This document shows positions 6,729-35,315 of a DNA stretch of 35,997 nucleotides, piece after piece (position 1 is the stretch's first letter; every line of letters starts with the position of its first letter). Location of the stretch: the IMG/VR virus record IMGVR_UViG_3300017917_004268, positions 1-35,997 of that record, one strand, 5' to 3'. The position numbers and the translations under genes were made by a program. Source of the stretch: a virus. The notes under the pieces were generated by a model that saw nothing but the letters and a program-made list of their open reading frames with translations, was not told the origin of the DNA and searched no databases.

Positions 6729-7619
6729 ATGGCCAGATTTACACAATCTGGTTCAGGTGATGGTATTCCAGGTCCTCAAGGTGAGCCAGGTACAACTGAC
6801 TATAACGATTTAGAAAATAAACCAAATATTAATAATGCATCAGTTGATTGGACTGCAAACCATTATCAAATAGAAGGTTTGGAAAATACAAGATATCTTG
6901 CTGGCGATGTTGTTTATTCAGATGGAGAACTTTATGTTGCAAATTTTGATAATGAAAGTTTACCTGTAACAAATACTCAATACTGGACAAACCTTGGTGC
7001 TGGAAATAGAATTAATATAGATGGAAGAGATATTCCAAACATACTTTATGAAAATATTTTAAATACTCCAGTAATACCAGATGCACAAATTCAATCTGAC
7101 TGGAATCAAGCAAATAATATAGCATTAGATTATATTAAAAACAAACCAACTGTTCCCACTGGAATATTTGAACCACAATATGGTTCATTTTACGACACTG
7201 GCGATCAAACTATAACTACTGCAAATGAAATAAAAGCAATGACTTATAACACTACTGATATAAGTCAAGGAATATCAATAGAAAACAATTCAGAAATTAC
7301 TATATCAAATGCTGGAATATATAATATACAGTTTTCTGCACAACTACATAATAATGGTGGTGGAGGTAACAGTTCAGAAGTTAATATATGGCTTTCAAAA
7401 AATGGTACTGATATTGACTGGACAAATACCAGAGTTGCTGTAAATACAAACTCACCATACGTAGTTGCATCATGGAACTTTTTTGTAACAGCAAATGCAA
7501 ATGATTATTTTGAAATAATGTGGTCATCTAACAATACATCAGTTGGACTAGATTTCTTGGCAGCAGGAGCACATCCAGCAGTTCCATCGGTTATCTTAAC
7601 TGTTAATCAAATTGCATAA
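6729..7619 (+). CDS. Tail fibre protein with collagen-like, carbohydrate-binding and C1q/TNF-like parts
   Basis: This is a 296-aa modular fibre. Residues 12-21 form three collagen-type G-x-y triplets (GIPGPQGEPG) with proline in two Y positions. YNDLENKP and DYIKNKPTVP are the linker motifs often repeated in phage fibres. Residues about 50-92 match a CBM5/12-like sugar-binding pattern (YLAGDVVYSDGELYVA then QYW). Residues about 145-296 are a glycine/asparagine-rich beta domain with the GIYNIQFSAQL and FEIMWSSNN strands of C1q/TNF-like tips, which trimerise. It most likely recognises the host surface. It is encoded just after a virion protein and near several hydroxylases, which makes post-translational modification of the collagen-like segment conceivable. 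Confidence 0.85.
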   Translation: MARFTQSGSGDGIPGPQGEPGTTDYNDLENKPNINNASVDWTANHYQIEGLENTRYLAGDVVYSDGELYVANFDNESLPVTNTQYWTNLGAGNRINIDGRDIPNILYENILNTPVIPDAQIQSDWNQANNIALDYIKNKPTVPTGIFEPQYGSFYDTGDQTITTANEIKAMTYNTTDISQGISIENNSEITISNAGIYNIQFSAQLHNNGGGGNSSEVNIWLSKNGTDIDWTNTRVAVNTNSPYVVASWNFFVTANANDYFEIMWSSNNTSVGLDFLAAGAHPAVPSVILTVNQIA

Positions 7620-13378: not shown

Positions 13379-13867
13379 ATGTCAAAACAATGTGGAACCT
13401 GTACAAAATGCTGTGATGGAACAACTGTTGGAGGGGTTATATATGGACACCCTTATGGAAATAAAAAACCATGTTATTTTTTAGATATAACAAATAAGAA
13501 TTGTAGTATATATAGTGATAGACCAGAACACCCTTGTAAATCTTACCAATGTATGTGGCTAAAATATGAAGATGTGCCGCTTTGGATGAAGCCAGAAAAT
13601 TCAAATGTAACTGTTAGTGCGGTAGATTACAATAATAATAAGTTTTTAATAATGAATGCTCATTCTAATGATTATTCTGCAAAAGTTTTATCATATGTTA
13701 TAAACTATGCACAAAAAAACAATATGAATTTAATATACGATCTGTCTTGGGGTGGTGGTTCATGGGTATTAAAGGGTGATAAGAGTCAGTTATTTGATTT
13801 TATTTTTAATTCAAGATCTTTTGAACATTTACCTTTAGATTTTACTCATGAATTTTATACTATATAG
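13379..13867 (+). CDS. YkgJ-type zinc/iron-chelating Cys-cluster protein
   Basis: This is a 162-aa protein with the YkgJ signature: C5-x2-C8-x2-C11-C12, then Cys32, Cys42, Cys53 and Cys58 with the diagnostic CSIYSDRPEHPCKSYQC. Family members bind a metal (Zn or Fe) through the clustered cysteines; biochemical role is not established. The C-terminal half (FNSRSFEHLPLDF) is less conserved. In this genome it could help deliver iron to the seven Fe(II)-dependent oxygenases, one of which is encoded convergently with an 8-nt overlap; that is inference only. Confidence 0.82.
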   Translation: MSKQCGTCTKCCDGTTVGGVIYGHPYGNKKPCYFLDITNKNCSIYSDRPEHPCKSYQCMWLKYEDVPLWMKPENSNVTVSAVDYNNNKFLIMNAHSNDYSAKVLSYVINYAQKNNMNLIYDLSWGGGSWVLKGDKSQLFDFIFNSRSFEHLPLDFTHEFYTI

Positions 13868-16783: not shown

Positions 16784-17500
16784 CTATGAATAATTTTTTC
16801 TTGACCAAAAATTTTTTTTGTATCCATTTTCCATTACCTTTTTAATTCCATAAGACATTTTTCTAAATGCTTTATCGTTAAATTCAAGTGCTTGAGAATT
16901 CCAGTCTTCTCTTTTAATAAAAATCATTTGATATATTGGTGTTCCTGCAGGTATCAAACCTTCAAAACCTCGCTTTACCATAAATGGTATTGGGCCATTA
17001 ACTGACCATTTGTCTGTATCTATAATACCACTCATTGTAAAGAATGGCAAGTCTAATCTATTTGCTGGATGATAATACAATGTACTGTATCCTGCTGGAG
17101 TTTGAGGCTCCCATTGTGTTATCCAATGAAACTCAGTAGTATAGTATCCACTAAAATCTGGAAATACTCTTTTTGAATTAGTATCCTGTGCTCTAGTTGA
17201 CATTGGTTTTATTGGTCCTGCCCATTTATAATTAACAATATCTTCTCCAGTATTTGGATTAATTCCAGAATTATATATTTCTACATCACAAATTAGTTCT
17301 TGTGTATATCCAGAAGTTAATGCATCAATAAAAGGTGGGCATTTTTTTGCAGTACCATCTTCACTTCTTCCATTAATTGTTTTTTGTAATGTTGGCATAT
17401 CTTTAAACCATTGTGCTAAATAGTTTCTGGATGGTTTTGGATGTGGAAGCATAGCCTCAGCATCATAACTAGATGGAATAAAGTTTACTTTTTGATTCAA
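16784..17500 (-). CDS. Uncharacterised phage protein, family shared with 30234 and 30998 (member 1)
   Basis: This is a 238-aa protein of a family represented three times in the window. Shared marks: P-x-P near the N-terminus with WFKDMP, KKCPPFIDALTSGYT (about residues 51-65), GYSTLYYHPANRLDLPFF (about 138-155) then GIIDTDKW, and GLIPAGTPIYQMIFIKREDW (about 181-200). The beta-strand-rich pattern resembles a double-stranded beta-helix. It is reminiscent of DUF6065-like proteins, but I am not certain of that link. It starts with TTG inside a TTGA overlap with the preceding 54-aa gene. Function unknown. Confidence 0.65.
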   Translation of the reverse strand: MNQKVNFIPSSYDAEAMLPHPKPSRNYLAQWFKDMPTLQKTINGRSEDGTAKKCPPFIDALTSGYTQELICDVEIYNSGINPNTGEDIVNYKWAGPIKPMSTRAQDTNSKRVFPDFSGYYTTEFHWITQWEPQTPAGYSTLYYHPANRLDLPFFTMSGIIDTDKWSVNGPIPFMVKRGFEGLIPAGTPIYQMIFIKREDWNSQALEFNDKAFRKMSYGIKKVMENGYKKNFWSRKNYS

Positions 17501-18085: not shown

Positions 18086-18311
18086 CAATCGCCTCTCTTG
18101 TTAATAAAACTATTGCACCATTTTGTTCTAATGCCTTTTTTACTTTAAATATATATTGCACTGCTTCTATTTTTTCATCATGATTTAGTTTTATTAATTT
18201 TTTAGAGTCTATTTTAACTGATATAAAATTATCATTATCAAATATTTCTACACCAAAATTTTTGGGTGCATTTATAGACCTAAATGCTCTTTTCATTTGA
18301 TCAGTATACAT
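18075..18311 (-). CDS. Small hypothetical protein (78 aa) next to WhiB
   Basis: The start ATG at 18311 overlaps the WhiB stop (TAATG). A longer frame from 18350 runs inside WhiB and is rejected. The protein (MYTDQMKRAFRSINAPKNFG at the start) has a beta-alpha-beta look: FGVEIFDNDNFISVKI, then helix HDEKIEAVQYIFKVKKALEQ, then strand GAIVLLTREA. This could be a ferredoxin-like or small regulatory fold. Tight coupling to whiB suggests a common function. No family recognised. Confidence 0.6.
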   Translation of the reverse strand: MYTDQMKRAFRSINAPKNFGVEIFDNDNFISVKIDSKKLIKLNHDEKIEAVQYIFKVKKALEQNGAIVLLTREAIDER

Positions 18312-18595
18312 TATGAACCCATAGTCAATGTTTGCCAAATATTTGCCCATGTGGATTTGTTTTTATGGTTATTAAATTCTCTAGAGATTTCTCCTTGCTC
18401 TAAGTAAATTCCTCCCCAAACTCCCCACTCTTTTTGTGTTATACCAATAGAAAAGCATTCTTTCATTACTGGACATTCAGAACATAATTTGTCAATTGCT
18501 GGTCTTAACAATAAGTCTTCTTCATATTTTTCAAAAAATATATTAGTATCAAACTTATAGCAAGATGCTTTATCTTTCCATGCATATTTTTTCAT
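18311..18595 (-). CDS. WhiB-family iron-sulfur transcription factor
   Basis: This 94-aa protein has the four iron-sulfur cysteines of WhiB proteins: Cys12, then C38-S-E-C41 and Cys47, and the turn motif GVWGG (58-62) with the preceding KEWG. WhiB proteins occur in actinobacteria and their phages and bind the RNA polymerase sigma factor to change promoter choice. They respond to oxygen or NO through a [4Fe-4S] cluster. The C-terminus is shorter and not strongly basic (KNKSTWANIWQTL), so DNA contact may be weak and the protein may act mainly on sigma. This is the best evidence for an actinobacterial host. The gene lies in an operon with other small genes. Confidence 0.93.
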   Translation of the reverse strand: MKKYAWKDKASCYKFDTNIFFEKYEEDLLLRPAIDKLCSECPVMKECFSIGITQKEWGVWGGIYLEQGEISREFNNHKNKSTWANIWQTLTMGS

Positions 18596-22706: not shown

Positions 22707-22913
22707 TTATTTCTTTCCAAATCTAGCCCAAAGTCTTTCGTGTATAAAATATGCAAATGCTTCCCATGCAATATAAAATAATGCACCAAAACTAGCATAT
22801 TCCCATTCACCAGTAAACACATATATAACACCAGCAATAACTACTAAATGAACTGTTTCCCAACTAAGTGTTTTTGTCAAACTTTTTTTAACGGTTTCAT
22901 TATTTTTTTTCAT
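22707..22913 (-). CDS. DUF2061-type membrane protein
   Basis: This 68-aa protein has a charged N-terminus (KKSLTKTLSWETVHLVV), two hydrophobic segments (HLVVIAGVIYVFTG and SFGALFYIAWEAFAYFI) and the closing FIHERLWARFG. This order matches DUF2061 (K-S-L-x-K-T-x-S-W ... TGEW ... H-E-R-x-W). It is probably a two-span inner-membrane protein. The start overlaps the Gfo/Idh gene by 14 nt. Function unknown. Confidence 0.75.
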   Translation of the reverse strand: MKKNNETVKKSLTKTLSWETVHLVVIAGVIYVFTGEWEYASFGALFYIAWEAFAYFIHERLWARFGKK

Positions 22914-23874
22914 TTATTATCTCCCTTATTTGATCAAAAAGTTGTGCAAATTTAAGAGATTCAGATAAAGGCATTAACCAAGAATCTTCGCCTCTTATTG
23001 CCTTTGCAAATGAATCTAGCATCAATTGATACGGATTGCATGGTGCAAATTCTTCTATAATAATTTTATCATATTTATTTTTAATAGTCAATGAACTATT
23101 CTTATTGTATGAAAAAAAAGCATCATTGTCATTAGTGTAAATTTCTCCATCTGTACCTTTTATGCTCAGTTTATCTACAAAATCAATATTCATTGAAGTC
23201 AATGTTGTTGCTTTGACATCACCAATTGTGTAGGAAGTTTTTAAAGTTTCATCACATCCACCTGGATGCCAAGTCACTTCAGTTGAAATATCTTTAATAG
23301 GTGCAAAATCGGTAATCCACATTGGAGCAACTGTGGAATAAGGTCCTAAATCGTAAAGACTTCCACCACCTAGTTCTGGACTCGTTCTAATTTTATTTTT
23401 ATCTATTAGTCCAGCATACGTACATCTTGCATCAATTTCGGTTATTTTGCCAATAACTCCAGAATCAACAAGTTGTTTGATTCTTACAGTTCTAGGGTGC
23501 CATCTATTCCAACTTGCTTCCATTAGCAATTTTCCTGTTGATTCAGAAACCTTGATTGCTTCCTTTAGTTCTTGAGCATTCATTGCTATTGGTTTTTCAC
23601 ACAAAACATGTTTACCTGCTTGCATTGCTTTTATTGACCATGGAATATGTAAAGAATTTGGCAATGAAATATAAACTGCTTCTACTTTTGGATTATTTAT
23701 TAAATATTCATAACTATTTGTAGTTTCTTTTGTCGGATGCAAATCTATCGCTCTATCAATATCTCTACTGGCAACAATATACAGATCAGCAATATGTGAG
23801 TTTTTAATTGCTGGTGCTAGTGCAGTTTTAGCAATCAATCCTGCACCTATAAATCCAAATTTAACCTTGTTCAT
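22900..23874 (-). CDS. Gfo/Idh/MocA-family oxidoreductase
   Basis: This is a 324-aa NAD(P)-dependent sugar or inositol dehydrogenase-like protein. The Rossmann motif is KFGFIGAGLIAKTALAPAI (residues 4-22), with HVLCEKPIAMNAQEL (about 90-104) holding the EKP signature and the catalytic Lys. The C-terminal beta-sheet domain follows (GGGSLYDLGPYSTVAP, with D-x-G-x-Y). Length is standard. It is the first enzyme gene after the decoration glycosyltransferases and could oxidise a UDP-sugar or the sugar made by the NTP transferase. It starts directly after the stop of the glycosyltransferase gene (TGATATG). Confidence 0.9.
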   Translation of the reverse strand: MNKVKFGFIGAGLIAKTALAPAIKNSHIADLYIVASRDIDRAIDLHPTKETTNSYEYLINNPKVEAVYISLPNSLHIPWSIKAMQAGKHVLCEKPIAMNAQELKEAIKVSESTGKLLMEASWNRWHPRTVRIKQLVDSGVIGKITEIDARCTYAGLIDKNKIRTSPELGGGSLYDLGPYSTVAPMWITDFAPIKDISTEVTWHPGGCDETLKTSYTIGDVKATTLTSMNIDFVDKLSIKGTDGEIYTNDNDAFFSYNKNSSLTIKNKYDKIIIEEFAPCNPYQLMLDSFAKAIRGEDSWLMPLSESLKFAQLFDQIREIINEKK

Positions 23875-23875
23875 A

Positions 23876-24835
23876 TCAAGAATATGTTTTACTGTTTAAT
23901 ACTGATCTTCTTATGTTCCAATATTCTTGTTCCATGCCTATTTCATTATAAAAATCTACAATACTTCTTTTATAATTTAAAAAATTAAAATATTTATTTT
24001 TGCCCATTATCATTAATTTTTTAACTTCTTTAGTCATTTCTTCGTCGTCAAAAATCCATATTCTAGACCAGTGATTTGGATTGTTTCGATCCGTTCCAAC
24101 AAACTTCCACCACTTTTCATCATATGGAAACGAATACTTAACATCATTTCCTGCATAATGAACTATTGCATCTGCATATGGGGCAACAACATCATATCCC
24201 TGACAATATACTGCAATGGATTGTTCTGGTTCTTCAAAAGGAAATCTATGGTATCCAGGAAATTGTATTGCTTTAATATCAGAGCACTTTGCAAAAATGA
24301 AATTGCAGGATATATAATAGTTTTTAAAATACTTATCATTAACCTTGTCTTTGTTTGGTATAAAATCAAATTCTACTATCTCTCCATGTATATCTAATTC
24401 ATCAAAATTACCACTTAAAAACCATTTAGTTTTCCAATTTTTTCTTTCTTGAACTATTGCTGTAGCCTGTCTAGATATAATTCTTTTTTCATTATTTTTT
24501 GTTAATTCTTCTATGTCATCTATTAAAGTAGTGTCCCAATTAAGTTCAAAATCTGCATGAGCATCTATACCTAAAAAGTACTGCTCGTCTTCTATTAGAC
24601 CCCTTATAGCCTCTCTAATGCCAACTATTCCTGGCATACCTTCTGCTATATCTCTATCTCTAACTATTTTTATAATATTATCAAACTTAGAAAAATCTGG
24701 CTCTTTTTCATAATTTAAACCAAGACCAAATACTATATTTTCTGGATAATATGCAGTATCTAAAAGGTGTTCCATTGTTTCTACTAAATGCGTATCTTCC
24801 CATGCTGGTATTGATACAAATATTTTTTTATTCAC
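23876..24835 (-). CDS. Glycosyltransferase, GlcNAc-transferase (Skp1 GnT-like) type
   Basis: This is a 319-aa protein with the start IFVSIPAWEDTHLVETMEHL, like GlcNAc transferases of the PF11397 type (V-S-I-P-S-x-R-D). YFLGIDAHADFELNWDTTLI holds the D-x-H metal site, and the later PFEEPEQSIAVYCQGYDVVAP fits the acceptor/lid region. Members of that family add GlcNAc to hydroxyproline in Skp1, which is notable beside so many hydroxylases. The true start is GTG at 24835, overlapping the carbamoyltransferase stop as GTGA; a longer frame to 24868 runs inside that gene. Confidence 0.75.
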   Translation of the reverse strand: MNKKIFVSIPAWEDTHLVETMEHLLDTAYYPENIVFGLGLNYEKEPDFSKFDNIIKIVRDRDIAEGMPGIVGIREAIRGLIEDEQYFLGIDAHADFELNWDTTLIDDIEELTKNNEKRIISRQATAIVQERKNWKTKWFLSGNFDELDIHGEIVEFDFIPNKDKVNDKYFKNYYISCNFIFAKCSDIKAIQFPGYHRFPFEEPEQSIAVYCQGYDVVAPYADAIVHYAGNDVKYSFPYDEKWWKFVGTDRNNPNHWSRIWIFDDEEMTKEVKKLMIMGKNKYFNFLNYKRSIVDFYNEIGMEQEYWNIRRSVLNSKTYS

Positions 24836-26274
24836 GATATTATTTCCGATCCATATTCTTTTTGCCAATTAATTATATCACTCTCATCATTTAGCAATGG
24901 TTGACCTTTAATATTTAAACTAGTATTAAGTAATACTGGAACCCCAGACATTTTTTTCCATCTTCCTAGCAAATCATATAAACCTGGATGTTGATTTTTA
25001 TTAACAGTTTGAACTCTTGATGTACCGTCTTCGTGTACAACAGCAGGAATTAAGTCTGGCTTTAAACACTTAACGGCATACTGCATGTATGGGCTAGTGA
25101 AGTCCATATCAAACCACTGTTTAGCATATTCCTCCATAACTACTGGTGCAAATGGTCTAAACAACTCTCTTTTTTTAATTAAATTAACTTTATCTTTTAT
25201 ATTCTTGTCTCTAGGATCTGCAAGAATACTTCTATTTCCTAATGCTCTTGGTCCGTACTCTGCTCTTCCGTATGCAACTGGTGCTATACCATCTTTAACT
25301 AATTTATCTAGTATGCTAAAAACTGGATAATTATGGTTTAAATTTAAATCATATCCAAGATATGGTGTTTCAAATTTAACATGTTTTCCATATAATGCTG
25401 CGGCAGCACCAAGGGAACTACCAGCATCTCCAGGATTAGGCATGATCCATATATCATCAAATATATCCCATAACTTTGTATTTGCAGAACAATTCAAGGC
25501 ACAGCCACCCATAAAAACAAGATTCTTTTTTCCAGTATGTTTTTTAGCAATATTCATAAACTCTAAAAGTCTTTTTTCGTATACATGTTGAACTGCAGCA
25601 GCAATATCAAATTTATCTTGCTGAATTAATTCAGGAAATTTCCAATCATATATACCTTTATGAAAGTTATATTTTTGTATTGATACCGCTGGAAAATACT
25701 TTTCTACAATCTCTCCGTACTTTATATGGTTTCCATATGCAGCCATACCCATCATAATATATTCTTCTTCATTTGGTTTTAAGCCAAGTAATTGTGTAAA
25801 AGCAGAATAAAATAAACCAAAACTATATGGATAATTTAATTTATAAGATAGACTAATTTTGCTTCCTTTGCCAACCCAAACACTAGATGTAGTAAATTCT
25901 CCTATTGCGTCTAATACAACTATTACTGCATCATCAAATTTGCTCGTATAATAACCTGCTGCTGCATGAGAATAATGATGTGAAAAATTTTTTCTAGGTA
26001 TTTTATTTAAATGTGTATACTCAAAAAATGGTTTGTCTCCACCAAAACCACCATGCCTAAAGATTCTATATTTTTTTAATAATGGTTTTTCGTAATATGC
26101 AATTTTGTCAGGTACTCCATATTGCAAAGCCTCATTAATAATATCCATATTGTTAAACCAAGAATTTTTTACTTTGCTATATCTTTCAGCATGTGCAGCA
26201 AATAAAATTTTATCATTTTCAATTAAGGATATTGATGCATCATGAGTTGTTTCATTAATTCCCATTATTAGCAT
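24832..26274 (-). CDS. NodU/CmcH-type carbamoyltransferase
   Basis: This is a 480-aa protein of the NodU/CmcH O-carbamoyltransferase family, which uses carbamoyl phosphate and ATP to carbamoylate a sugar or antibiotic hydroxyl. Motifs: GINETTHDASISLIEND (start), FSHHYSHAAAGYYTS (metal-binding HHxxH region), VVLDAIGEFTTSSVW, FMGGCALNCSANTKLW and the C-terminal GRAEYGPRALGNRSILADPR. Typical members are longer (about 550-600 aa); this one lacks part of the C-terminal tail. It overlaps the SGNH gene by 20 nt (11 nt if the later ATG is used) and the glycosyltransferase by 4 nt. It is a strong sign of glycan or small-molecule decoration. Confidence 0.9.
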   Translation of the reverse strand: MLIMGINETTHDASISLIENDKILFAAHAERYSKVKNSWFNNMDIINEALQYGVPDKIAYYEKPLLKKYRIFRHGGFGGDKPFFEYTHLNKIPRKNFSHHYSHAAAGYYTSKFDDAVIVVLDAIGEFTTSSVWVGKGSKISLSYKLNYPYSFGLFYSAFTQLLGLKPNEEEYIMMGMAAYGNHIKYGEIVEKYFPAVSIQKYNFHKGIYDWKFPELIQQDKFDIAAAVQHVYEKRLLEFMNIAKKHTGKKNLVFMGGCALNCSANTKLWDIFDDIWIMPNPGDAGSSLGAAAALYGKHVKFETPYLGYDLNLNHNYPVFSILDKLVKDGIAPVAYGRAEYGPRALGNRSILADPRDKNIKDKVNLIKKRELFRPFAPVVMEEYAKQWFDMDFTSPYMQYAVKCLKPDLIPAVVHEDGTSRVQTVNKNQHPGLYDLLGRWKKMSGVPVLLNTSLNIKGQPLLNDESDIINWQKEYGSEIIS

Positions 26275-27079
26275 TGACTTGCTCCATCCTATTTAAAAAT
26301 TCCATATACCAGGCATAGTGTGCTGCTTCGCTTGGATGACTTCCATCAATTCCTACAATTGTCATAAAAGGTTTAACATCTTTTATATATTGAAAAGTAT
26401 TGTTAGCAAATCTTTTATGATCTATTTGATAATATGTATCAAAAGAATCTAGCATACTTTTATGCATTTTAATTTCGTAGTCTTTTATGTCTAAATAAAT
26501 AAAATCCGTTACTCCTGGAGTAGTGTCTACCCAAGAGGTTGTAATTAGTTTTATATTTTTATTTTTACAATAGTTTTCTAATATACTATATAAATTATAC
26601 AAAAATATATCTACTATTTCTCCATTCCCCTGACTAATGTTAAATTTGTTCCAATCTCTACCATAATTAGAAAAAAGAATAAAAATATAGTTTGGATCAG
26701 AGTATTTTGCAATATATTTAAAAACATTTAAAAGTATTTCTATTGGTGAACCACCAGATAAACTCACGTTAAAGTATCCACTACACTTTTCTTTTTGACT
26801 AATATTGTTATATAGTTTATAGGACCAAGTATTTTTTATGTTATCTACCCCACAACCTGCTGTAATAGAGCATCCTGCAAACAAAAAATGTTTTTGGCTA
26901 TGATGAACTTTTGTAAAAGGATCACTAAAATAATATTTATAGTTATTTGAATTTTTATCTGAATTTAAAAATGGTCCAAGTATATCACTATCTTTTGTTA
27001 ATAAATATTGAAAATTTTTAGGATTATCTAATTTTTGTTTTTTAATTATTTCTTTATATCTTTCTAAATTATCATTCAT
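26255..27079 (-). CDS. SGNH/GDSL-like hydrolase or acyltransferase, copy 1
   Basis: This is a 274-aa protein with an SGNH-type fold: FLFAGCSITAGCGVDN (nucleophile Ser71), YFNVSLSGGSPIE (Gly block), YIFILFSNYGRDW (Asn block) and GIDGSHPSEAAHYAW with Asp245 and His248. Related proteins remove or add acetyl groups on glycans. It overlaps the carbamoyltransferase, so it probably acts on the same substrate. It shares its overall plan with the gene at 27148-28005. No signal peptide. Confidence 0.78.
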   Translation of the reverse strand: MNDNLERYKEIIKKQKLDNPKNFQYLLTKDSDILGPFLNSDKNSNNYKYYFSDPFTKVHHSQKHFLFAGCSITAGCGVDNIKNTWSYKLYNNISQKEKCSGYFNVSLSGGSPIEILLNVFKYIAKYSDPNYIFILFSNYGRDWNKFNISQGNGEIVDIFLYNLYSILENYCKNKNIKLITTSWVDTTPGVTDFIYLDIKDYEIKMHKSMLDSFDTYYQIDHKRFANNTFQYIKDVKPFMTIVGIDGSHPSEAAHYAWYMEFLNRMEQVNANNGN

Positions 27080-27147
27080 ATTAGTAAATAAAATCTCTTT
27101 TTTTAAAATGTTTTTTATTTTTTCTAAGCCAAAACCAAAACTTAATC

Positions 27148-28005
27148 TTATATATTATTTTTTTCATTTATATACCTTTCGTAAAAGTATTCACTCCATG
27201 CATAATGAAAAGCAAGTCCGTGATGATTGCTGTCATCAATAGTTTTCATTAAACCATCTACATCTTTATTTTTTACACTAAAATCATAAACATCTTTATA
27301 TATTTTTGCAACTCTTATATTTTTAAAAGTACTTGTATTTTTTTCTAAAAGGCTAAATCCTTCAAATGCATCACGAATACCTAATTCAAAAAACGGATCT
27401 TCTTGCGACGGAACAATCATGCCATTATCATCAGTCAACTTAAAGTTATCGTTTCCAAGCATAAGCCAAGAACTTGATATAAGTGTTATATTATTAGAAA
27501 TACAGTAGTCCTCTAGTTGTTTATAATGCTCAATAATAAAATCATTTAGCCATATTTTTGGGTTTTTAATATATACATGATCTCTTTCAAAATTTGGTAA
27601 AAATAAAAATATTACATCTGGTTTAGAAAATTTTCTTATATATCTATATATATTTACAATTATTTCAAAAATAGTGGCACCTTCTACTCCAAGATTAAAA
27701 TATCCACTACAAGACTCTTTTGTTAAAATTTTATTGTATAAAAGATAACTCCAAACATCTTCATATCTATTACCTGTTCCAAAAGTATTAGAACATCCAG
27801 CAAACAAAATATGCTTTGAGTCATGATCTTTTATAAAATTTTCAGATCTAAAATTATCATTATTTAATACATAAGAAATTCTTGAATCTTTATTTTCCCA
27901 CTCAGTTTTTGATATTAAAAAATTATTAAAATTGTTATGAAAATAATTAGCATAGTATTCAAAGTATTCTTTATCATCAATATATTGTTTATCTTTGTCA
28001 AACAT
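27148..28005 (-). CDS. SGNH/GDSL-like hydrolase or acyltransferase, copy 2
   Basis: This is a 285-aa paralogue of the gene at 26255-27079. ILFAGCSNTFGTGNRYEDVW holds nucleophile Ser72; YFNLGVEGATIFEI and VIFLFLPNFERDH hold the Gly and Asn blocks; and DDSNHHGLAFHYAW holds Asp258 and His261. The 68-bp gap between the two copies is AT-rich with no feature. Duplication suggests two steps, such as two different acyl positions, or a heterodimer. Very AT-rich and rich in Asn, Lys and Ile. Confidence 0.76.
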   Translation of the reverse strand: MFDKDKQYIDDKEYFEYYANYFHNNFNNFLISKTEWENKDSRISYVLNNDNFRSENFIKDHDSKHILFAGCSNTFGTGNRYEDVWSYLLYNKILTKESCSGYFNLGVEGATIFEIIVNIYRYIRKFSKPDVIFLFLPNFERDHVYIKNPKIWLNDFIIEHYKQLEDYCISNNITLISSSWLMLGNDNFKLTDDNGMIVPSQEDPFFELGIRDAFEGFSLLEKNTSTFKNIRVAKIYKDVYDFSVKNKDVDGLMKTIDDSNHHGLAFHYAWSEYFYERYINEKNNI

Positions 28006-28009
28006 AATA

Positions 28010-28684
28010 TTATTCTTGTCCAGTAGAACTTCTTATCATGTCTGATGGAACATTATGAAACCAGGTAGGAACTGCATATCTTGGTCCTTTGAGTACTGGG
28101 GCAACTTCATGAATATATAGAAAATTAGAAGGAAAAAATAAAACACTACCAGCCTGTGGTTTTATAGTTATATTAGATTGTCTAAATGTTATTTCTCCAC
28201 CTGCATAGTCATCATTTAAATACAATAAAACAGATAATACTCTAGTGCTTACTCCTTGATCTTGGTGTGGTGGCAAATGACCAGTTTTGTCATATCTCAG
28301 TAAGTTTGTAGTTTGTTCTTTTGCTTTAATATTTCTTGATGCAAAGGGATATAGTTTTGTTGAATAATGAAATAGTGCTTGGTCAATTGCTCCATGTATT
28401 CTACTAGATATATTTCTTTGTTCATCCCTAAATGCATCTTCGTCTAATATTTGAGGCATAGTGGGAATAAATTTTTGCCAGCAAAAAATTTCTTTTGTTT
28501 TAGAACTTTCGTTTACCCAAGGCAACCATTTTTCAACAACTGTTCTAGACTTTGTTTGATCATCGCTATTTAAAAATCTTTCATCTAAATCTTCTATATT
28601 TTTAATAATTTGTTCGGTATTTTTTACAATGTTTTTATAGTATACCAATCCTAAATCTAATACCTCATAATCTATTGAACTCAC
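28010..28684 (-). CDS. 2OG-Fe(II) oxygenase, copy 6
   Basis: This is a 224-aa dioxygenase with iron ligands His140, Asp142 (PPHQDQG) and His192 (IHEV), and Arg202. YLNDDYAGGEITFRQSNITI gives the core strands. The long N-terminus (about 125 residues) includes FCWQKFIPTMPQILDEDAF and is unlike copies 1-5, so it may have its own substrate-binding part. GTG start; it overlaps copy 7, encoded upstream, by 20 nt. Together they form a second oxygenase pair, this one inside the decoration cluster. Confidence 0.85.
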   Translation of the reverse strand: MSSIDYEVLDLGLVYYKNIVKNTEQIIKNIEDLDERFLNSDDQTKSRTVVEKWLPWVNESSKTKEIFCWQKFIPTMPQILDEDAFRDEQRNISSRIHGAIDQALFHYSTKLYPFASRNIKAKEQTTNLLRYDKTGHLPPHQDQGVSTRVLSVLLYLNDDYAGGEITFRQSNITIKPQAGSVLFFPSNFLYIHEVAPVLKGPRYAVPTWFHNVPSDMIRSSTGQE

Positions 28685-29291
28685 GCTCTTCAGCCTCTCT
28701 TTCTAGTGGATATTCTTGTGCTTGCCATATTGGATTTTTATCTTCTCCTAAAAAATCTGGATCTGCATGTTGGGGAAGAGATGTATGCATATATAATGCA
28801 GTATATCTATGACCTTCTGTTACCTCTGTAATTCCGTGAATATATTCTGTTCCAGAACTTGGAAAAAATACCGCAGAATATTTTTTAGGCTGGTAAACAA
28901 AATCTTGGTTTGGAAAAAATATTTGACCACCCTGATATTCTGGAACCTCATTTAAATATATAACAGTACTAAATTCTATAAATGGCTCTGGACCCTGAGC
29001 ATCTAGATGCAGGCCACCCCTTGTTCCCTTGATCCAATGAGAACCAAAACCTTTAAAAACATAGATTGGATTTACAAAACCATTTAATGCTCTATGCATC
29101 TCATTAGACTTATGCCCATATTTTATTAATATGTCCATCACTATTTTGTTATACGGTAGAGATGTTCCACCATATCTTTCTTTATAGTATTCTGGATATG
29201 GGTTAATTTGAGATGGGTAGTGCTGTTCTTTTATTAAGGTAGCAGCATCTTCAGGGCTAATAAAATTTTCTACCACGGTAATTCTATGCAC
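28665..29291 (-). CDS. 2OG-Fe(II) oxygenase, copy 7
   Basis: This is a 208-aa dioxygenase with iron ligands His95, Asp97 (GLHLDAQG) and His152 (YIHGI), and Arg162. STVIYLNEVPEYQGGQIFFP gives the jelly-roll strands. The N-terminal phrase MHRITVVENFISPEDAATLI is the typical P4H lead-in. It starts with GTG, has a Shine-Dalgarno AGAAAGG 7 nt upstream, and an extended -10 just before that, so it is the first gene of a unit running to the SGNH genes. Confidence 0.86.
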   Translation of the reverse strand: MHRITVVENFISPEDAATLIKEQHYPSQINPYPEYYKERYGGTSLPYNKIVMDILIKYGHKSNEMHRALNGFVNPIYVFKGFGSHWIKGTRGGLHLDAQGPEPFIEFSTVIYLNEVPEYQGGQIFFPNQDFVYQPKKYSAVFFPSSGTEYIHGITEVTEGHRYTALYMHTSLPQHADPDFLGEDKNPIWQAQEYPLEREAEEREFNRL

Positions 29292-29298
29292 AGTTTTG

Positions 29299-29320
29299 CC
29301 TTTCTAAGTCTATTATATCA
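29299..29320 (-). promoter_or_regulatory. Promoter and ribosome site for the second oxygenase pair
   Basis: On the minus strand TGA-TATAAT (-10 at 29317-29312) is followed by AGAAAGG (29305-29299), 7 nt before the GTG at 29291. It is in the 29-bp gap behind the glycosyltransferase gene. Confidence 0.55.
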
Positions 29321-30247
29321 TTAGTCGATATATCTTATTTTTGTCATAAACTTTTTTGAATCTACATCTGTGTATACAGATAAGTCAGGATCATATTCAA
29401 CATCATCTAGTAAAAAAGGTAAATAGTTTAACTTTTCAAGATCTATGTTATGTATTCTAAAAAAAGAGGGTATGTCGCCCATTAAAGGTTCGTCAATATT
29501 GTCATATTTATTTTTTTGTTTTTTAAATAAATCTATCATCTGATTGTAATTATGATATTTAGAAAATGTGGTGTATAGGTCTTTTATCGTATCCTCAGAA
29601 TCCTTTACGTAAAAATCATCTGGACACGCATACATTTTTATATTATTAGCAAAATATAATATAGACATGACCTCTTCTTCTCCATAGTATTTCATATACC
29701 ATGGATAACCAACCTTTTTCAAAGTTTCTGTATATCCAAATATTAAATCTCTACTAACAAAATATGTTGGCTCTATTTTATCAATAATTTCTTCTTCTTT
29801 TTTTAAATAAAACAGTCCCTCATTACTTAAAGTAATTTTATTTTTTCCAGTAATAACATTATGCTTTCCTTTTAAATTTTTTAATAAAAATTCATCCCAG
29901 TCTTGACTTAAATATATATTGTCTGACATAAACATAGTATATGAATAGTTTGAACTTTTTAATACTTCGTTTTTATAATAACAGGGACTCTTTATTTTAT
30001 CCCAAAAAATATGAGTATAGTTAACATTTTTAAAATTATCGTAATATTCCCATTTATCCTCTAGTTGTTCGTTATAAAAACCAAATTGATTCCATTTAGT
30101 TAAAGGACTTTGATCAAAAACTTTTACAAATATATTATTTTTTTTAGAAGACATATCCAATAAATTAGAAACAACTTTTTTCAAATCTTTATTTTTATAA
30201 GAATATATTGTTACTAAAATTGGATTTGGTAAATCAGTATTCGTCAT
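29321..30247 (-). CDS. Glycosyltransferase, probable GlcNAc-transferase type
   Basis: This 308-aa protein begins PNPILVTIYSYKNKDLKKVV, resembling the (I/V)-x-(S/Y)-x-R-D start of GlcNAc-transferase (PF11397) proteins. SYTMFMSDNIYLSQDWDEFL is the acidic metal-binding region. YYGEEEVMSILYFANNIKMY fits the second acidic site (Y-G-E-E) of the family. It belongs to the same broad type as the gene at 23876. Its start lies 14 nt inside the previous gene. Very AT-rich, with long Lys/Asn runs. Confidence 0.68.
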   Translation of the reverse strand: MTNTDLPNPILVTIYSYKNKDLKKVVSNLLDMSSKKNNIFVKVFDQSPLTKWNQFGFYNEQLEDKWEYYDNFKNVNYTHIFWDKIKSPCYYKNEVLKSSNYSYTMFMSDNIYLSQDWDEFLLKNLKGKHNVITGKNKITLSNEGLFYLKKEEEIIDKIEPTYFVSRDLIFGYTETLKKVGYPWYMKYYGEEEVMSILYFANNIKMYACPDDFYVKDSEDTIKDLYTTFSKYHNYNQMIDLFKKQKNKYDNIDEPLMGDIPSFFRIHNIDLEKLNYLPFLLDDVEYDPDLSVYTDVDSKKFMTKIRYID

Positions 30248-30998
30248 AATCCTCTTTTAAACCTTTGGTTCCAAATATTTTTTTTCTCCAAGCAGTTTTT
30301 TTATAATATCCATAAAGCAAAGATCTTCTGTTCTCTGCTTTAAATTCATGATCATCAGATTTTTCTTGACTAGTATCTATCTCCATTTCCCAATTATCCC
30401 TTTTAAAAGGTATCATTTGAAAAACTGGAGTTCCTTTTTTAATTATTCCTTGAAAACCTCTTTTTAAAAAAAATGCAGTAAACACTGGTAATCCCCAAAT
30501 ATCTGATTCAACAATACCAGACATAGTTATAAACGGTAGATCATGTCTATTCATCGGATGTGTAATCAATACAGAATATCCTGGAGGCGTTTCGTAATAC
30601 CAATTCATTCTCCAACCATAATGTATTGGATGACAATTGTCTGGTACTGGTAAGTCTATTGTTGGTCTTTTATCCATAATCATTATATCTTTATCCCAAG
30701 ATAATCTTGGTTTTCCATTTTTATCTAACTCTACCAACAAATCATCTTCCAATAAATAATAATATCCAGCAGTCAAAGAATCAAAAAATGGCATGCACAT
30801 TTTAGTAGCAACTCTTGCACCATCCCCACCAATATTATTTACTGGACTTAAATATTTTTCATCATTCCATATCTCATGCTTTGCTAAACTTTTATACCAT
30901 TCTGGAACATGTTTTACTGCAGGTTCTGGTGCAATAAATGACTTGCTATGATTTGGTGCACCGCCAGGAGTAAAAGATATTTTTAATGAATCGCTCAT
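30234..30998 (-). CDS. Uncharacterised phage protein, family member 2
   Basis: This 254-aa relative of the genes at 16784 and 30998 has PAVKHVPEWYKSLAKHEIWN, MCMPFFDSLTAGYYYLLEDD, then PPGYSVLITHPMNRHDLPFI, GIVESDIW and GTPVFQMIPFKRDNW. The start shares TGATG with the preceding stop (ATG 30998); a GTG at 31001 is an alternative. Position between other decoration genes suggests a related function, perhaps a metal-dependent enzyme of double-stranded beta-helix type. Unknown function. Confidence 0.65.
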   Translation of the reverse strand: MSDSLKISFTPGGAPNHSKSFIAPEPAVKHVPEWYKSLAKHEIWNDEKYLSPVNNIGGDGARVATKMCMPFFDSLTAGYYYLLEDDLLVELDKNGKPRLSWDKDIMIMDKRPTIDLPVPDNCHPIHYGWRMNWYYETPPGYSVLITHPMNRHDLPFITMSGIVESDIWGLPVFTAFFLKRGFQGIIKKGTPVFQMIPFKRDNWEMEIDTSQEKSDDHEFKAENRRSLLYGYYKKTAWRKKIFGTKGLKEDYDEY

Positions 30999-31726
30999 CA
31001 CTTATATTCTTTTTTTTGTCTAAACTTTTCTTTATATGAATTTCTAAAACCACTTCTTACCAAAAGTCTTTGTCTTTCGATTTCACCTTTTGCTTCTATG
31101 TGAGGTATAAAATCTGATTCCCACATCTCTCTTTTAAATGGAATTGCTTGAACTAACGGAGTTCCTTGTTTAATTATTCCTTCAAAGTTTTTCTTAATGT
31201 ACATCGATAAATGCCCATCTGATGCAAAATAGTCTGTATCTATAATTGCTTCAAAAGCCTTAAAAGGAACCTGATCTCTATGATATGGGTGTGTAAAAAG
31301 AGTACTATATCCTTTAGGTGTCATCATTGCCCAAAATGGCAAAATTCTAAAAACTTGTTTGTGATAAATATCAAGATCTACTGGATATTCAGAAACCTGT
31401 TCATGAGTATGTGTTGCTATCATATCATTACCCAAAAATTTTAATTCGTTAGGAACGCTCCATGTTATTTTTTCTGGATTTGTTGTATTAACATATATGT
31501 CCATTGGAACTTTAAATATATATCCAGCAGTCATTAAATCAAAAATAGGCATGCATCTTTTTATGGTGCTGCTCATACTTCCTTTTGAAATATATTCTTT
31601 AAACTCATCTCCAATAAATCCTGGTTGTTTTTTGTACCATTCTGGCACGCATTTTATTGCTGGCTCTGGCTTTGGTACAAATGATTCTGTTTTGTCTGAA
31701 AACGGATAAAAACTAACCTTGTTCAT
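30998..31726 (-). CDS. Uncharacterised phage protein, family member 3
   Basis: This 242-aa relative of the genes at 16784 and 30234 carries KPEPAIKCVPEWYKKQPGF, then IKRCMPIFDLMTAGYIFKVP, PKGYSTLFTHPYHRDQVPFK, IIDTDYF and GTPLVQAIPFKREMW. Ribosome site TAGGAG precedes the ATG. It overlaps the upstream gene by 14 nt. Being directly beside member 2, it is probably the product of a tandem duplication; the 16784 copy is more divergent. Confidence 0.65.
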   Translation of the reverse strand: MNKVSFYPFSDKTESFVPKPEPAIKCVPEWYKKQPGFIGDEFKEYISKGSMSSTIKRCMPIFDLMTAGYIFKVPMDIYVNTTNPEKITWSVPNELKFLGNDMIATHTHEQVSEYPVDLDIYHKQVFRILPFWAMMTPKGYSTLFTHPYHRDQVPFKAFEAIIDTDYFASDGHLSMYIKKNFEGIIKQGTPLVQAIPFKREMWESDFIPHIEAKGEIERQRLLVRSGFRNSYKEKFRQKKEYK

Positions 31727-32420
31727 AAAATCTCCTAATGTCTTTTATAATTATATCATTTGCCTCAAAAACTATGTTATACATAGGAGACAATCTTTTT
31801 ATTTTTCCGTAATCCTTATCAATTATATGTTTTCCATATTTTTTAAATTGAAAATGAACAAAAGGTGGTTCTATTTCCTGTGTCGATAAAGGTATTTTTT
31901 TAAAAACTACGTTGCTCTCTAAAATAAAAAATGGTGAATCTTCTGCTTGTTTTATACTAACTTCAATATTTTCATCAAAAATCCAAGGCATATAAAATCT
32001 AAAAACATTGTCAAAACAATTTTTATTTGTGCTAATTTGATCAGATGGATAATACTGCCTTATCCATGGTCTATCTAAATTCCACATAAGATTTTCTTTA
32101 TATAGGCTAGGTCTTGACATTGTATCTATAATTTCAGGACTAATTGCCAAAAATATTTCAGCATGATTAGTTTGTTGAAGTGTAACTATATTATTAGATA
32201 TATCCAGTAACTTTGGCTTAATAGATAATCTAGAAGCATACATATTTACTGGTTTTAATATACTATTTCTATATTTGTTTAATCCATTTTGATAGGACAA
32301 CCATCTTGATGGAACTCTAGATCTTTTGTTGATCCACAAAAAAGATTCAGATTTTGATTTATTCCATATAAAAAAATCTTCTTTGAGTTCAGAGATAGAT
32401 TCGTTATTAGATTGTTTCAT
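31713..32420 (-). CDS. Uncharacterised protein (235 aa)
   Basis: No family is recognised. Features visible: an N-terminal polar stretch, WINKRSRVPSRWLSYQNGLN, then LMWNLDRPWIRQYYPSDQ, FRFYMPWIFDENIEV, EIEPPFVHFQFKKYGK and a terminal MYNIVFEANDIIIKDIRRFY. The late PFVHFQFKKYGK beta strand resembles a cupin-like core, so it may be a distant relative of the neighbouring family members. It overlaps neighbours by 14 nt on both sides, so it is in the same translation chain. Confidence 0.6.
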   Translation of the reverse strand: MKQSNNESISELKEDFFIWNKSKSESFLWINKRSRVPSRWLSYQNGLNKYRNSILKPVNMYASRLSIKPKLLDISNNIVTLQQTNHAEIFLAISPEIIDTMSRPSLYKENLMWNLDRPWIRQYYPSDQISTNKNCFDNVFRFYMPWIFDENIEVSIKQAEDSPFFILESNVVFKKIPLSTQEIEPPFVHFQFKKYGKHIIDKDYGKIKRLSPMYNIVFEANDIIIKDIRRFYEQG

Positions 32421-32892
32421 CCCAATCCTTGTTCAATAATTCTTTTGGAACTATTTTACCCCATTGAGTCTCAATACCAATCTTCCAACCCTCTTCTGCA
32501 GAAATCCATCCTAACAATCTTACAGTTCTATATTCTGCATCAGCCAACTCTGCACCCCAAATAACCCAATTTGGTTTTAATATATCTTTATCTCTTATTG
32601 TAGGTCCAGATTGCGTTCTTACTCTTCTTACTTCTATATTTGTTCCTACATCTGGCATATCTTTATATTTTTTATGTTTTCTTCCATCCCAAACAGATCC
32701 ATGCCAGTATTGATTTAAATATTTTGCAACTGCTAGTTCGCATATTGCAGATGCTGCTTGAGCATTTCTATCTTCTTCTTTATTATTGTTTTGATAATAT
32801 GACGCATCTGCTTTACCCCAGTTTTCTGTATATCTTCTAATACCAACCATATAAGCATGTTCATATTCCCATTGCTGTAATTCAATTAACAT
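32407..32892 (-). CDS. PD-(D/E)XK-like nuclease domain protein
   Basis: This 161-aa protein includes ASAICELAVAKYLNQYW (helix with Glu) and DMPDVGTNIEVRRVRTQS, which fits the P-D-x(n)-E-x-R/K active-site pattern (about residues 96-106). NWVIWGAELADAEYRTVRLL is the following strand pair. The Lys of the usual E-x-K is Arg here. Phage proteins of this type are often annotated as exonuclease-like or Cas4-like. It is the first protein gene after the tRNAs, with a ribosome site AAGGAAA. Activity is uncertain. Confidence 0.58.
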   Translation of the reverse strand: MLIELQQWEYEHAYMVGIRRYTENWGKADASYYQNNNKEEDRNAQAASAICELAVAKYLNQYWHGSVWDGRKHKKYKDMPDVGTNIEVRRVRTQSGPTIRDKDILKPNWVIWGAELADAEYRTVRLLGWISAEEGWKIGIETQWGKIVPKELLNKDWDETI

Positions 32893-33065: not shown

Positions 33066-33842
33066 TTATTCTGTAACTTGTACTAATTTATCAGTAACAG
33101 TTAATCCCTTTTGCCATTGTGTTGCTACTGCAATAGTTGCAGATGACGTTGTTTGAGGAATTAGGCCAAAAGATACTGATTGATAGTTAAATTTGCCAGT
33201 AGGTAAAACCCCAAAATAATCAGTATTTGCATCATGATTTCCTACAGGAAATGTTGAAACAGAAACTGTGTCTGTAATACATGCTGGATAGTTTACTGGT
33301 TTTTTGTTTGAATCGTTTCCAGTAGAAACGAAAACTGGAATGCCTTTAGAGTTTAAACTAGCAATCAAACTTCTAATTGCTGGATCAACAATTTTTACAT
33401 TAGTTAAACCAGAAGTTGATAATTTACACTCACCAGGCTTAGTCATATTTCCACTTAGGTTATATGAAAAAGATACTGCAGAGATATTAGAATTATTGGC
33501 ATCTACCCACTGTAATGCTGCTAAAAATGTGTTTCCACTAATTGTTGAAACATTGCCTTTTTTATCTACTGTAGATGATCTTAATAATATCAAAGGAACA
33601 TCGGGATTGTTTCTGCGAGCAACCTCTGCCATTGCAGTACCGTGATTTACTGCATCTGATACTCGATTTGATGGCTTTGCAGTATTAACACAATTATCTG
33701 CAGCAATACAAACCACTGTAGCATTTGGTATACGTGCATCAAAATAACTATCAATAATTACAATTGATCCACCTTGAACTCCATAAGATGGAACTGATAG
33801 CAATGATAGTAGTACGGATATTGCGATTATTATTTTTTTCAT
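33066..33842 (-). CDS. Secreted subtilisin-like (S8) serine protease
   Basis: This 258-aa protease has an N-terminal signal peptide (KKIIIAISVLLSLLSVPSY). The catalytic triad is Asp31 (IVIIDSYFD), His67 (NHGTAMAEV) and Ser234 (TTSSATIAVA), with oxyanion Asn176 (STGNDSNK). The serine motif differs from GTSMA: the glycine and alanine are changed, but Ser is in place. Cysteines 45/51, 139/188 could make two disulfides. There is no pro-domain, so folding may be unusual. A phage-coded secreted subtilase could cleave host surface proteins or act late in infection. The start overlaps the 59-aa gene by 4 nt (ATGA). Confidence 0.85.
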   Translation of the reverse strand: MKKIIIAISVLLSLLSVPSYGVQGGSIVIIDSYFDARIPNATVVCIAADNCVNTAKPSNRVSDAVNHGTAMAEVARRNNPDVPLILLRSSTVDKKGNVSTISGNTFLAALQWVDANNSNISAVSFSYNLSGNMTKPGECKLSTSGLTNVKIVDPAIRSLIASLNSKGIPVFVSTGNDSNKKPVNYPACITDTVSVSTFPVGNHDANTDYFGVLPTGKFNYQSVSFGLIPQTTSSATIAVATQWQKGLTVTDKLVQVTE

Positions 33843-34634: not shown

Positions 34635-35315
34635 ATGCCTGGAATTTTAACAGTTGGTGCAGTTCATATTGGTAACCCAATGGACATGTCTCCAAATATC
34701 ATAAATAGTATTATAAATCATGATGTCATTGCAGTAGAAAATATTGATATTTTTAATGAATTATTAGATAATCTTAATATAAAAACAAAAGCACATATTG
34801 AAGAAATAGGAAGTTATCAAGATAAAGAAATAATGCTAAAAATAATAGAAATGCTAAAAAATAATAAAAATGTGCTACTTTTACCAGATAGAGGAACTGC
34901 TAGTTTTCATGATCCAGGAGATATTATTGTTAACTATGCATCACAAATTGGTATAAAGGTAACTTCTATACCTGGTCCAAACTGTCTAATTCCATCAATA
35001 GTTATATCTGGATTGGGCATAGATAAATTTATTTATGGCTCTAGAACTTCAGACAAAGAAGAGAGAGTTAAGTTTTTAACAAAATATAAAGATATGGAAC
35101 TTCCAATAGCATTTTTATCTACACCACGCTATATAGAAGATTTATTATTGGATGCTTTAGATATTTTAGGAGAAAATATTTATTGTGTAATTTGTATTGA
35201 ATTAACAACAAATCGTGAAAAAGTTATTAGATGTAATATAAAAGAAATGATTAAAAAATATTATAATAACGAACTTAATGGGGAGTCCGTTATTATAATG
35301 TGTCAAACTAATTAG
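34635..35315 (+). CDS. RsmI-like tetrapyrrole-methylase-fold protein, copy 3
   Basis: This 226-aa protein shares ILTVGAVHIGNPMDMSPNII at its start with copy 2 (V-G-x-x-H-I-G-x-x-x-D-M-S). It then has LLLPDRGTASFHDPGD (family D-x-G-T-x-x-x-x-D-P-G) and SIPGPNCLIPSIVISGLGID (family P-G-P-x-x...S-G-L). It appears to be an active-fold class III methyltransferase relative, but pocket residues differ from RsmI, and copies 2 and 3 may be a specialised phage branch. Leaderless promoter 7 nt upstream. The 3' end overlaps the convergent membrane gene by 8 nt. Substrate unknown. Confidence 0.74.
   Translation: MPGILTVGAVHIGNPMDMSPNIINSIINHDVIAVENIDIFNELLDNLNIKTKAHIEEIGSYQDKEIMLKIIEMLKNNKNVLLLPDRGTASFHDPGDIIVNYASQIGIKVTSIPGPNCLIPSIVISGLGIDKFIYGSRTSDKEERVKFLTKYKDMELPIAFLSTPRYIEDLLLDALDILGENIYCVICIELTTNREKVIRCNIKEMIKKYYNNELNGESVIIMCQTN

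What the first reader, a model, noticed from the sequence alone, without database searches (positions are those of the whole stretch)
22900..32420. Decoration cluster: sugar oxidoreductase, two glycosyltransferases, carbamoyltransferase, twin SGNH, two oxygenases
A near-continuous reverse run holds enzymes seen together in antibiotic and surface-polysaccharide pathways: Gfo/Idh, GT, NodU-type carbamoyltransferase, two SGNH proteins, two dioxygenases, another GT and two proteins of an uncharacterised family. The gene order and overlaps indicate one pathway. Possible products are a decorated glycan on the virion or cell, a modified small molecule, or a hypermodified nucleotide. I know of no described phage pathway with this exact set.
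Basis: partly seen in the sequence, partly recalled or inferred. Interest (0 to 1): 0.78.

Follow-up and report, generated by a model that had tools for sequence, protein, structure and literature searches.

The report
Phage protein-hydroxylation and sugar-decoration operon
A virus of freshwater actinobacteria carries a compact, almost invariably ordered set of genes that most likely hydroxylates one of its own proteins, attaches a sugar to the new hydroxyl group and caps that sugar with a carbamoyl group; dozens of related uncultured phages share the set and I found no description of it.

Summary
Eleven minus-strand ORFs at 22900-32420 overlap or lie at most 68 bp apart. The called families hold: Gfo/Idh, two glycosyltransferases, NodU/TobZ-type O-carbamoyltransferase, two SGNH proteins (weak profile match, conserved catalytic motifs), two P4H-like 2OG oxygenases and two DUF6065/phrog_7084 proteins.

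A scan of IMG/VR with one gene (D7084a) shows a fixed core, X235-D7084b-D7084a-GTb-OxyB-OxyA-carbamoyltransferase, all on one strand: X235 77/77, D7084b 79/79, GTb 72/72, OxyB 67/68, OxyA 57/58, CTase 51/52. SGNH (37/52), GTa (15/51) and Gfo/Idh (4/51) are accessory.

Best reading: hydroxylation of a phage-encoded exported or fibre protein, then glycosylation and carbamoylation. The oxygenases resemble prolyl hydroxylases; GTa (weakly GTb) matches the Skp1 hydroxyproline GlcNAc-transferase family; distant marine phages keep 2OG-D7084-2OG directly upstream of neck genes. DNA hypermodification is disfavoured: no ThyA-type hydroxymethylase in 14 relatives, no TET above cut-off. The substrate is unproven.

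The parts
31713..32420 (-). X235: core gene, distant member of the D7084/DUF6065 family, probably dUTPase-like fold
   Evidence: 77/77 linked loci; hhalign to D7084 profile E 2e-4, collinear; AlphaFold2 pLDDT 85.5, Foldseek best plausible hit dCTP deaminase:dUTPase, prob 0.72, weak
30998..31726 (-). D7084b: core gene, phrog_7084/DUF6065, dUTPase/dCTP-deaminase-like fold
   Evidence: 3e-46; model pLDDT 86.6; the 50 PDB matches listed are all dUTPase or dCTP-deaminase entries or phage dUTPase complexes, prob 0.97-1.00, best E 6e-4, but high rmsd; 79/79 loci
30234..31001 (-). D7084a: core gene, same family as D7084b
   Evidence: the most conserved gene of the module together with OxyB (dN/dS 0.06-0.09)
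29321..30247 (-). GTb: core glycosyltransferase with S-D-D/N-I motif, GT60/GT2-like
   Evidence: 72/72 loci; no homologue in 50,697 phage records
28665..29291 (-). OxyB: core 2OG-Fe(II) oxygenase, H95-x-D97, H152, R162
   Evidence: Pfam 6e-8; best PDB match prolyl 3-hydroxylase 1, 1e-4; 67/68 loci
28010..28684 (-). OxyA: core 2OG-Fe(II) oxygenase, H140-x-D142, H192, R202
   Evidence: Pfam 6e-18; best PDB match bacterial prolyl 4-hydroxylase 1e-5, Tet-like only 0.25; 57/58 loci
27148..28005 (-). SGNH2: accessory SGNH-type protein, fast evolving
   Evidence: GCSxTxG and D258xxH261 conserved; dN/dS 0.44-0.57
26255..27079 (-). SGNH1: accessory SGNH-type protein
   Evidence: PF00657 0.009; D245xxH248; some SGNH in 37/52 loci
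24832..26274 (-). CTase: core O-carbamoyltransferase (NodU/NovN/TobZ type), both domains
   Evidence: PDB NovN-type 1e-52, GdmN, TobZ; H99xxxH103, D122, D283 conserved in 57 homologues; 51/52 loci
23876..24868 (-). GTa: accessory glycosyltransferase, PF11397 (Skp1 hydroxyproline GlcNAc-transferase family)
   Evidence: 2e-14; 15/51 loci
22900..23874 (-). Gfo/Idh sugar oxidoreductase, accessory, only in the closest relatives
   Evidence: 1e-21; 4/51 loci
32407..32892 (-). Y161: phrog_18407 protein of unknown function, overlaps X235; lineage-specific head of the run
   Evidence: 4e-9; 21/68 loci
16784..17500 (-). D7084c: further D7084 paralogue outside the module
   Evidence: 30% identical to D7084b; 60 IMG/VR loci with the same protein
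6729..7619 (+). Collagen-like, BclA-C-like fibre candidate: possible substrate, unproven
   Evidence: GIPGPQGEPG near the N terminus; BclA_C 0.0097, below cut-off

Best explanation
The seven-gene core is a phage operon for post-translational modification of a phage-encoded exported or fibre protein. OxyB and OxyA (P4H-like 2OG-Fe(II) oxygenases) hydroxylate side chains, most likely proline in a repetitive segment; X235, D7084b and D7084a are dUTPase-fold proteins that work with the oxygenases (possibly as a trimer that presents the substrate); GTb adds a sugar to the hydroxyl; the carbamoyltransferase caps a sugar hydroxyl with a carbamoyl group from carbamoyl phosphate and ATP. SGNH proteins, GTa and Gfo/Idh are lineage-specific additions that vary the glycan. 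Shown: gene identities, catalytic motifs, linkage, order and purifying selection. Inferred: that the target is a protein, that it is hydroxyproline-linked, the order of steps and the role of the dUTPase-fold trio.
For: Near-absolute co-inheritance, one strand, fixed order (37 distinct D7084a clusters at 95%, 15 at 80% identity). Nearest solved relatives of OxyA and OxyB are prolyl and lysyl hydroxylases. PF11397 holds the Skp1 hydroxyproline GlcNAc-transferase (family knowledge); GTa matches at 2e-14 and GTb marginally. The CTase is closest to sugar-acting enzymes such as NovN and TobZ. Unrelated marine T4-like phages keep 2OG-D7084-2OG between proteins with QP/SPFTY repeats and the neck genes, and a Chitinophagaceae contig has 2OG-2OG-D7084-like-D7084-2OG. 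In 37 of 44 loci with enough upstream DNA an ORF with 12-28 prolines per 60 residues lies upstream of X235 on the same contig, against 2 of 44 on the other side; several of these begin with a signal-peptide-like segment. The window ends inside the next gene (compare L126).
Against: No substrate is shown. Pro-rich ORFs also occur in 19 of 61 loci without the core, against 7 of 19 with it in the CTase set, many of them truncated, so they are common in these phages. In L153, L157 and L165 the upstream protein has an Ala/Glu-rich stalk instead, yet the module persists, with a divergent OxyB. GTb matches PF11397 only below cut-off. D7084 also occurs alone, without 2OG genes nearby, in gammaproteobacteria, Phenylobacterium and haloviruses. 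The dUTPase-like fold could instead point to nucleotides.
Confidence: 0.5

Rival explanations
1. The module modifies a cell-surface or virion polysaccharide of the host (for example to block superinfection or change the receptor): oxygenases act on a lipid or sugar, GTb adds a residue, the CTase and SGNH proteins add or remove carbamoyl and acyl groups.
For: CTase, SGNH, Gfo/Idh and GT are typical of surface glycan loci. In S-CAM3 a related carbamoyltransferase sits between fibre-like genes and heptose/sugar genes. SGNH hits accompany the CTase in 63 of 80 loci.
Against: The core lacks nucleotide-sugar synthesis, flippase and polymerase genes, and the oxygenases resemble protein hydroxylases. 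D7084 plus 2OG genes sit in late structural operons of marine phages.
Confidence: 0.25
2. The module hypermodifies DNA or free nucleotides: dUTPase-fold proteins handle a deoxynucleotide, the oxygenases make a hydroxymethyl base, GTb and the CTase decorate it.
For: A phage-type 5-hydroxymethylcytosine carbamoyltransferase that makes 5-carbamoyloxymethylcytosine is known (PMC8670742). The D7084 model resembles dUTPase and dCTP deaminase. A ribonucleotide reductase small subunit lies upstream in several relatives.
Against: The known 5hmC enzyme is only 25% identical (87 bits) and has GPRALCNTT where the window and NovN-type enzymes have GPRALGNRS. PF00303, the partner reported in that paper, is absent from 14 related records, with controls ringing (records may be incomplete). 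Tet_JBP is never over cut-off. The D7084 alignment shows no dUTPase-type R-S motif II (by eye).
Confidence: 0.13
3. The module makes or tailors a small molecule, like the carbamoylation and glycosylation steps of aminocoumarin or aminoglycoside antibiotics.
For: The CTase is nearest to NovN and GdmN; Gfo/Idh and GT genes occur in such clusters.
Against: No scaffold-building enzyme (polyketide synthase, NRPS, cyclase, aminotransferase) in the module, and the genes that look most like antibiotic tailoring (Gfo/Idh, GTa) are the ones most relatives lack.
Confidence: 0.06
4. The run is a chance pile-up of independent cargo genes with no common pathway.
For: Gfo/Idh, GTa, SGNH copies and Y161 come and go.
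Against: The seven-gene core is almost never broken, even where D7084a is down to 66% and GTb to about 30% identity.
Confidence: 0.03

Closest known systems
Skp1 prolyl 4-hydroxylase plus Gnt1 (PF11397/GT60) in Dictyostelium and relatives
   Same: P4H-type oxygenase paired with a PF11397 glycosyltransferase that works on the new hydroxyl
   Different: Cytosolic E3-ligase regulation in a eukaryote; no carbamoyltransferase, SGNH or dUTPase-fold partner; GTb is only marginally PF11397
Mimivirus L230 and animal LH3 (lysyl hydroxylase plus glycosyltransferase on collagen)
   Same: Virus- or animal-encoded hydroxylation followed by glycosylation of a repetitive fibre protein; LH3 is among OxyA's PDB matches
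   Different: Fused enzyme, lysine target, collagen; no carbamoylation
NodU/NolO, NovN, TobZ O-carbamoyltransferases
   Same: Same two-domain family with conserved HxxxH and Asp residues
   Different: Shorter (480 aa), phage-encoded, linked to oxygenases and D7084 proteins; acceptor unknown
Phage 5hmC carbamoyltransferase (5cmC), MetaGPA, PMC8670742
   Same: Phage-type carbamoyltransferase of the same superfamily
   Different: 25% identity, different signature, linked to a ThyA-type hydroxymethylase that is absent here
Nol-like carbamoyltransferase and 2OG oxygenases of T4-like cyanophages (P-SSM2, S-CAM3)
   Same: Same families, carbamoyltransferase near fibre genes
   Different: About 30% identity; D7084/X235/GTb not found next to it

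Membership tests
O-carbamoyltransferase (NodU/TobZ) | Carbam_trans_N and Carbam_trans_C domains | tested here: met
   2e-40 and 3e-51
O-carbamoyltransferase (NodU/TobZ) | Metal-binding HxxxH and Asp residues | tested here: met
   H99, H103, D122, D283 conserved in 57 homologues; assignment to metal by family knowledge
O-carbamoyltransferase (NodU/TobZ) | Carbamoyl transfer to a sugar hydroxyl | not testable with these tools
   needs biochemistry
Prolyl hydroxylase-like 2OG oxygenase | HxD...H plus a basic residue for 2OG | tested here: met
   OxyA H140, D142, H192, R202; OxyB H95, D97, H152, R162
Prolyl hydroxylase-like 2OG oxygenase | Peptidyl-proline substrate | not testable with these tools
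   only nearest solved relatives point to it
TET/JBP base oxygenase | Tet_JBP profile above curated cut-off | tested here: not met
   19.0 against 34.9 bits; 0 of 14 relatives over cut-off
5hmC carbamoyltransferase DNA modification system | Linked ThyA-type dCMP hydroxymethylase | tested here: not met
   PF00303 in 0 of 14 related records, 9 of 14 control genomes positive
PF11397 / GT60 hydroxyproline GlcNAc-transferase | Profile match above cut-off | tested here: inconclusive
   GTa 54.2 bits against 21 (met); GTb 18 against 21 (not met)
dUTPase / dCTP deaminase | Fold | tested here: met
   Foldseek prob 1.00, best E 6e-4, TMt 0.4-0.7 but rmsd high
dUTPase / dCTP deaminase | Catalytic motifs (R-S motif II, Asp of motif III) | tested here: not met
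   no R-S motif; the motif III-like position is Asp or Glu; only the motif IV-like Gln is invariant; aligned by eye, not by structure
SGNH hydrolase | Ser block and DxxH block | tested here: met
   conserved in 83 homologues, profile match weak

The most novel reading that the evidence does not exclude
The first bacteriophage system for hydroxyproline-linked, carbamoylated protein O-glycosylation, in which three paralogous dUTPase-fold proteins form a hetero-trimer that serves as the substrate-handling partner of two prolyl hydroxylases.
Probability: 0.18. Interest if true: 0.87.

Novelty: new variant of a known kind. Interest (0 to 1): 0.62.

Why it matters
It would be a dedicated protein-hydroxylation and glycosylation operon in phages, with chemistry (hydroxylation, sugar, carbamoyl cap) known mainly from eukaryotic proteins and antibiotics. 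It gives a first functional setting to DUF6065/phrog_7084, a family without any paper in the searched library, and it offers a test of why aquatic phages carry so many 2OG oxygenases (seven in this 36-kb record alone).

Tried and rejected
A scan with SGNH1 alone found no relatives, because it diverges too fast. PDB sequence searches with the D7084 and GTb profiles gave nothing. GTb, GTa, SGNH2 and X235 have no match among deposited phages. DNA hypermodification was tested and disfavoured. The search for the T4 capsid family PF07068 was uninformative because no control rang. I considered mapping the 5hmC-specific residues of PMC8670742 onto the window CTase and dropped it, as I could not fix the numbering. 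Pro-rich proteins as a specific partner of the core: positional association is strong, but the family is also frequent in loci without the core, so this counts as suggestive only. Internal promoters or terminators: no more than chance. X235 against a D7084-like protein of locus L103: no similarity by BLASTP.
Full report
What is there. The window is an IMG/VR virus record of 35,997 bases. A WhiB gene at 18311-18595 points to an actinobacterial host; whiB is the marker used for freshwater actinophages (PMC6802176). The two SGNH proteins are weak by profile, but their catalytic blocks are conserved in 83 homologues. All genes are under purifying selection against relatives, SGNH2 least. No promoter or terminator signal stands out inside the run; a perfect sigma-70 consensus lies just downstream, at 22526-22498 on the minus strand.

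Linkage. Loci fetched through the carbamoyltransferase already showed a repeated block. To avoid selecting for it, I fetched loci through D7084a and mapped the window proteins. Counting only loci with enough flanking DNA: X235 77/77, D7084b 79/79, GTb 72/72, OxyB 67/68, OxyA 57/58, CTase 51/52, SGNH 37/52, GTa 15/51, Gfo/Idh 4/51, Y161 21/68. The 80 loci fall into 37 groups at 95% and 15 at 80% identity of D7084a, so this is not one clone. The order X-b-a-G-B-A-C is nearly fixed; in some loci the CTase precedes OxyA (for example L155, L172) or lies upstream of X235 (L244-L254). Four loci (L255-L257, L260) have b-X-a-G-B-A and no detected CTase. The finding therefore contains a seven-gene core plus accessory cargo.

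The uncharacterised proteins. D7084a/b belong to phrog_7084 and DUF6065. An AlphaFold2 model (pLDDT 86.6) matches dUTPases and dCTP deaminases in Foldseek with probabilities near 1.00 and best E 6e-4, although superpositions are loose. X235 aligns to the D7084 profile at E 2e-4 over its C-terminal half, and its model's best plausible match is a dCTP deaminase:dUTPase (weak). Thus three consecutive genes are one family. Catalytic dUTPase motifs are not kept, apart from the Gln of the motif IV-like segment (by eye). dUTPases are trimers (family knowledge), so a heterotrimer is an attractive but untested idea. Six of the 29 D7084 homologues also match the EutQ cupin profile (2.6e-5), so the fold assignment rests on the structural model.

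Which chemistry. OxyA's nearest solved relatives are bacterial prolyl 4-hydroxylase, PKHD hydroxylases, prolyl 3-hydroxylase and collagen lysyl hydroxylase/glycosyltransferase LH3; Tet-like enzymes come at 0.25. OxyB's best is prolyl 3-hydroxylase 1. GTa belongs to PF11397, the family of the Skp1 hydroxyproline GlcNAc-transferase (family knowledge); GTb matches PF11397 and GT2 marginally. The CTase is a complete NodU/NovN/TobZ-type enzyme.

Context elsewhere. In marine T4-like phages a distant D7084 protein is flanked by two 2OG oxygenases (confirmed by Pfam for L324 and L369), the three genes overlapping or nearly so, directly upstream of genes recognisable as neck proteins (my reading; annotated as neck protein in S-CAM3) and downstream of proteins made of QP/SPFTY repeats. 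A Chitinophagaceae MAG contig has 2OG-2OG-D7084-like-D7084-2OG. So D7084 and 2OG oxygenases are repeatedly paired, in the second case among structural genes. In haloviruses D7084 is near fibre and adhesin genes without 2OG genes, and in several bacterial genomes it stands alone.

Candidate substrate. In 37 of 44 loci an ORF with 12-28 prolines per 60 residues lies upstream of X235 on the same contig, against 2 of 44 downstream. In relatives it is a protein with a globular head, TPTPEP stalk and hydrophobic, basic C terminus, several with a signal-peptide-like start; in L126 and L139 it follows the terminase. The window ends inside the gene that follows it in L126. Against it: loci with the CTase but without the core have such ORFs at a similar rate (19/61 against 7/19), and in L153, L157 and L165 the upstream protein has an Ala/Glu-rich stalk while the module persists. 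In L170 and L173 a collagen-like fibre lies upstream, similar to the one at 6729-7619 in the window.

Rivals. DNA hypermodification was taken seriously, since a phage-type 5hmC carbamoyltransferase is known (PMC8670742). The window CTase is only 25% identical to it and differs in the signature after GPRAL; its partner PF00303 is missing in 14 related records, although these may be incomplete; and Tet_JBP is never over cut-off. A surface glycan as target remains open. A small molecule is unlikely without scaffold enzymes.

Verdict. The core is a real, conserved co-functional unit (about 0.95 in my judgement); that it hydroxylates, glycosylates and carbamoylates a phage-encoded protein is the best explanation at about 0.5. 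The parts are known kinds of enzymes; the combination with a dUTPase-fold trio was found in none of the records or papers searched (the paper library lacks most subscription journals).

Noticed in passing
window 4785-5513, 9459-10073, 10070-10786, 13860-14516, 15806-16459: Five more 2OG-Fe(II) oxygenase-like genes, seven in all in 36 kb; Pfam or PHROG support for four, the fifth (15806) by the session's clustering with them.
   Followed up: partly
window 2329-3261, 8756-9469, 34635-35315: Three tetrapyrrole-methylase-family (PF00590) genes in one phage record; role unknown, homologues also sit next to the core in some relatives.
   Followed up: no
window 5461-6432: Radical SAM/SPASM gene between an oxygenase gene and the collagen-like fibre candidate; could modify a peptide or the fibre.
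   Followed up: no
L160:4735-6339: A tryptophan-halogenase family gene (PF04820, 2e-102) just upstream of the core in a phage contig.
   Followed up: no
window 16784-17500 and L261-L320: A further D7084 paralogue, conserved in 60 loci outside the core module, in the window near a 2OG gene on the opposite strand.
   Followed up: partly
window 22526-22498 (-): Perfect sigma-70 consensus (TTGACA-17-TATAAT) between the module and the downstream operon, which carries SAM decarboxylase, WhiB and a GmrSD_C-type nuclease.
   Followed up: no
L324:1862-3079: A repeat-rich structural-region protein of a marine T4-like phage with weak Hint/intein-like profile matches (2.7e-4, below cut-off).
   Followed up: no
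L153, L157, L165 upstream of X235: The exported stalk protein has an Ala/Glu-rich stalk instead of a Pro-rich one, and OxyB is unusually divergent in the same loci (43-45% against 62-88% in most others).
   Followed up: partly
window 33066-33842: Signal-peptide-bearing subtilisin-like protease next to the module, conserved in relatives; in L126 and L139 it has its own PTPVV repeat.
   Followed up: no
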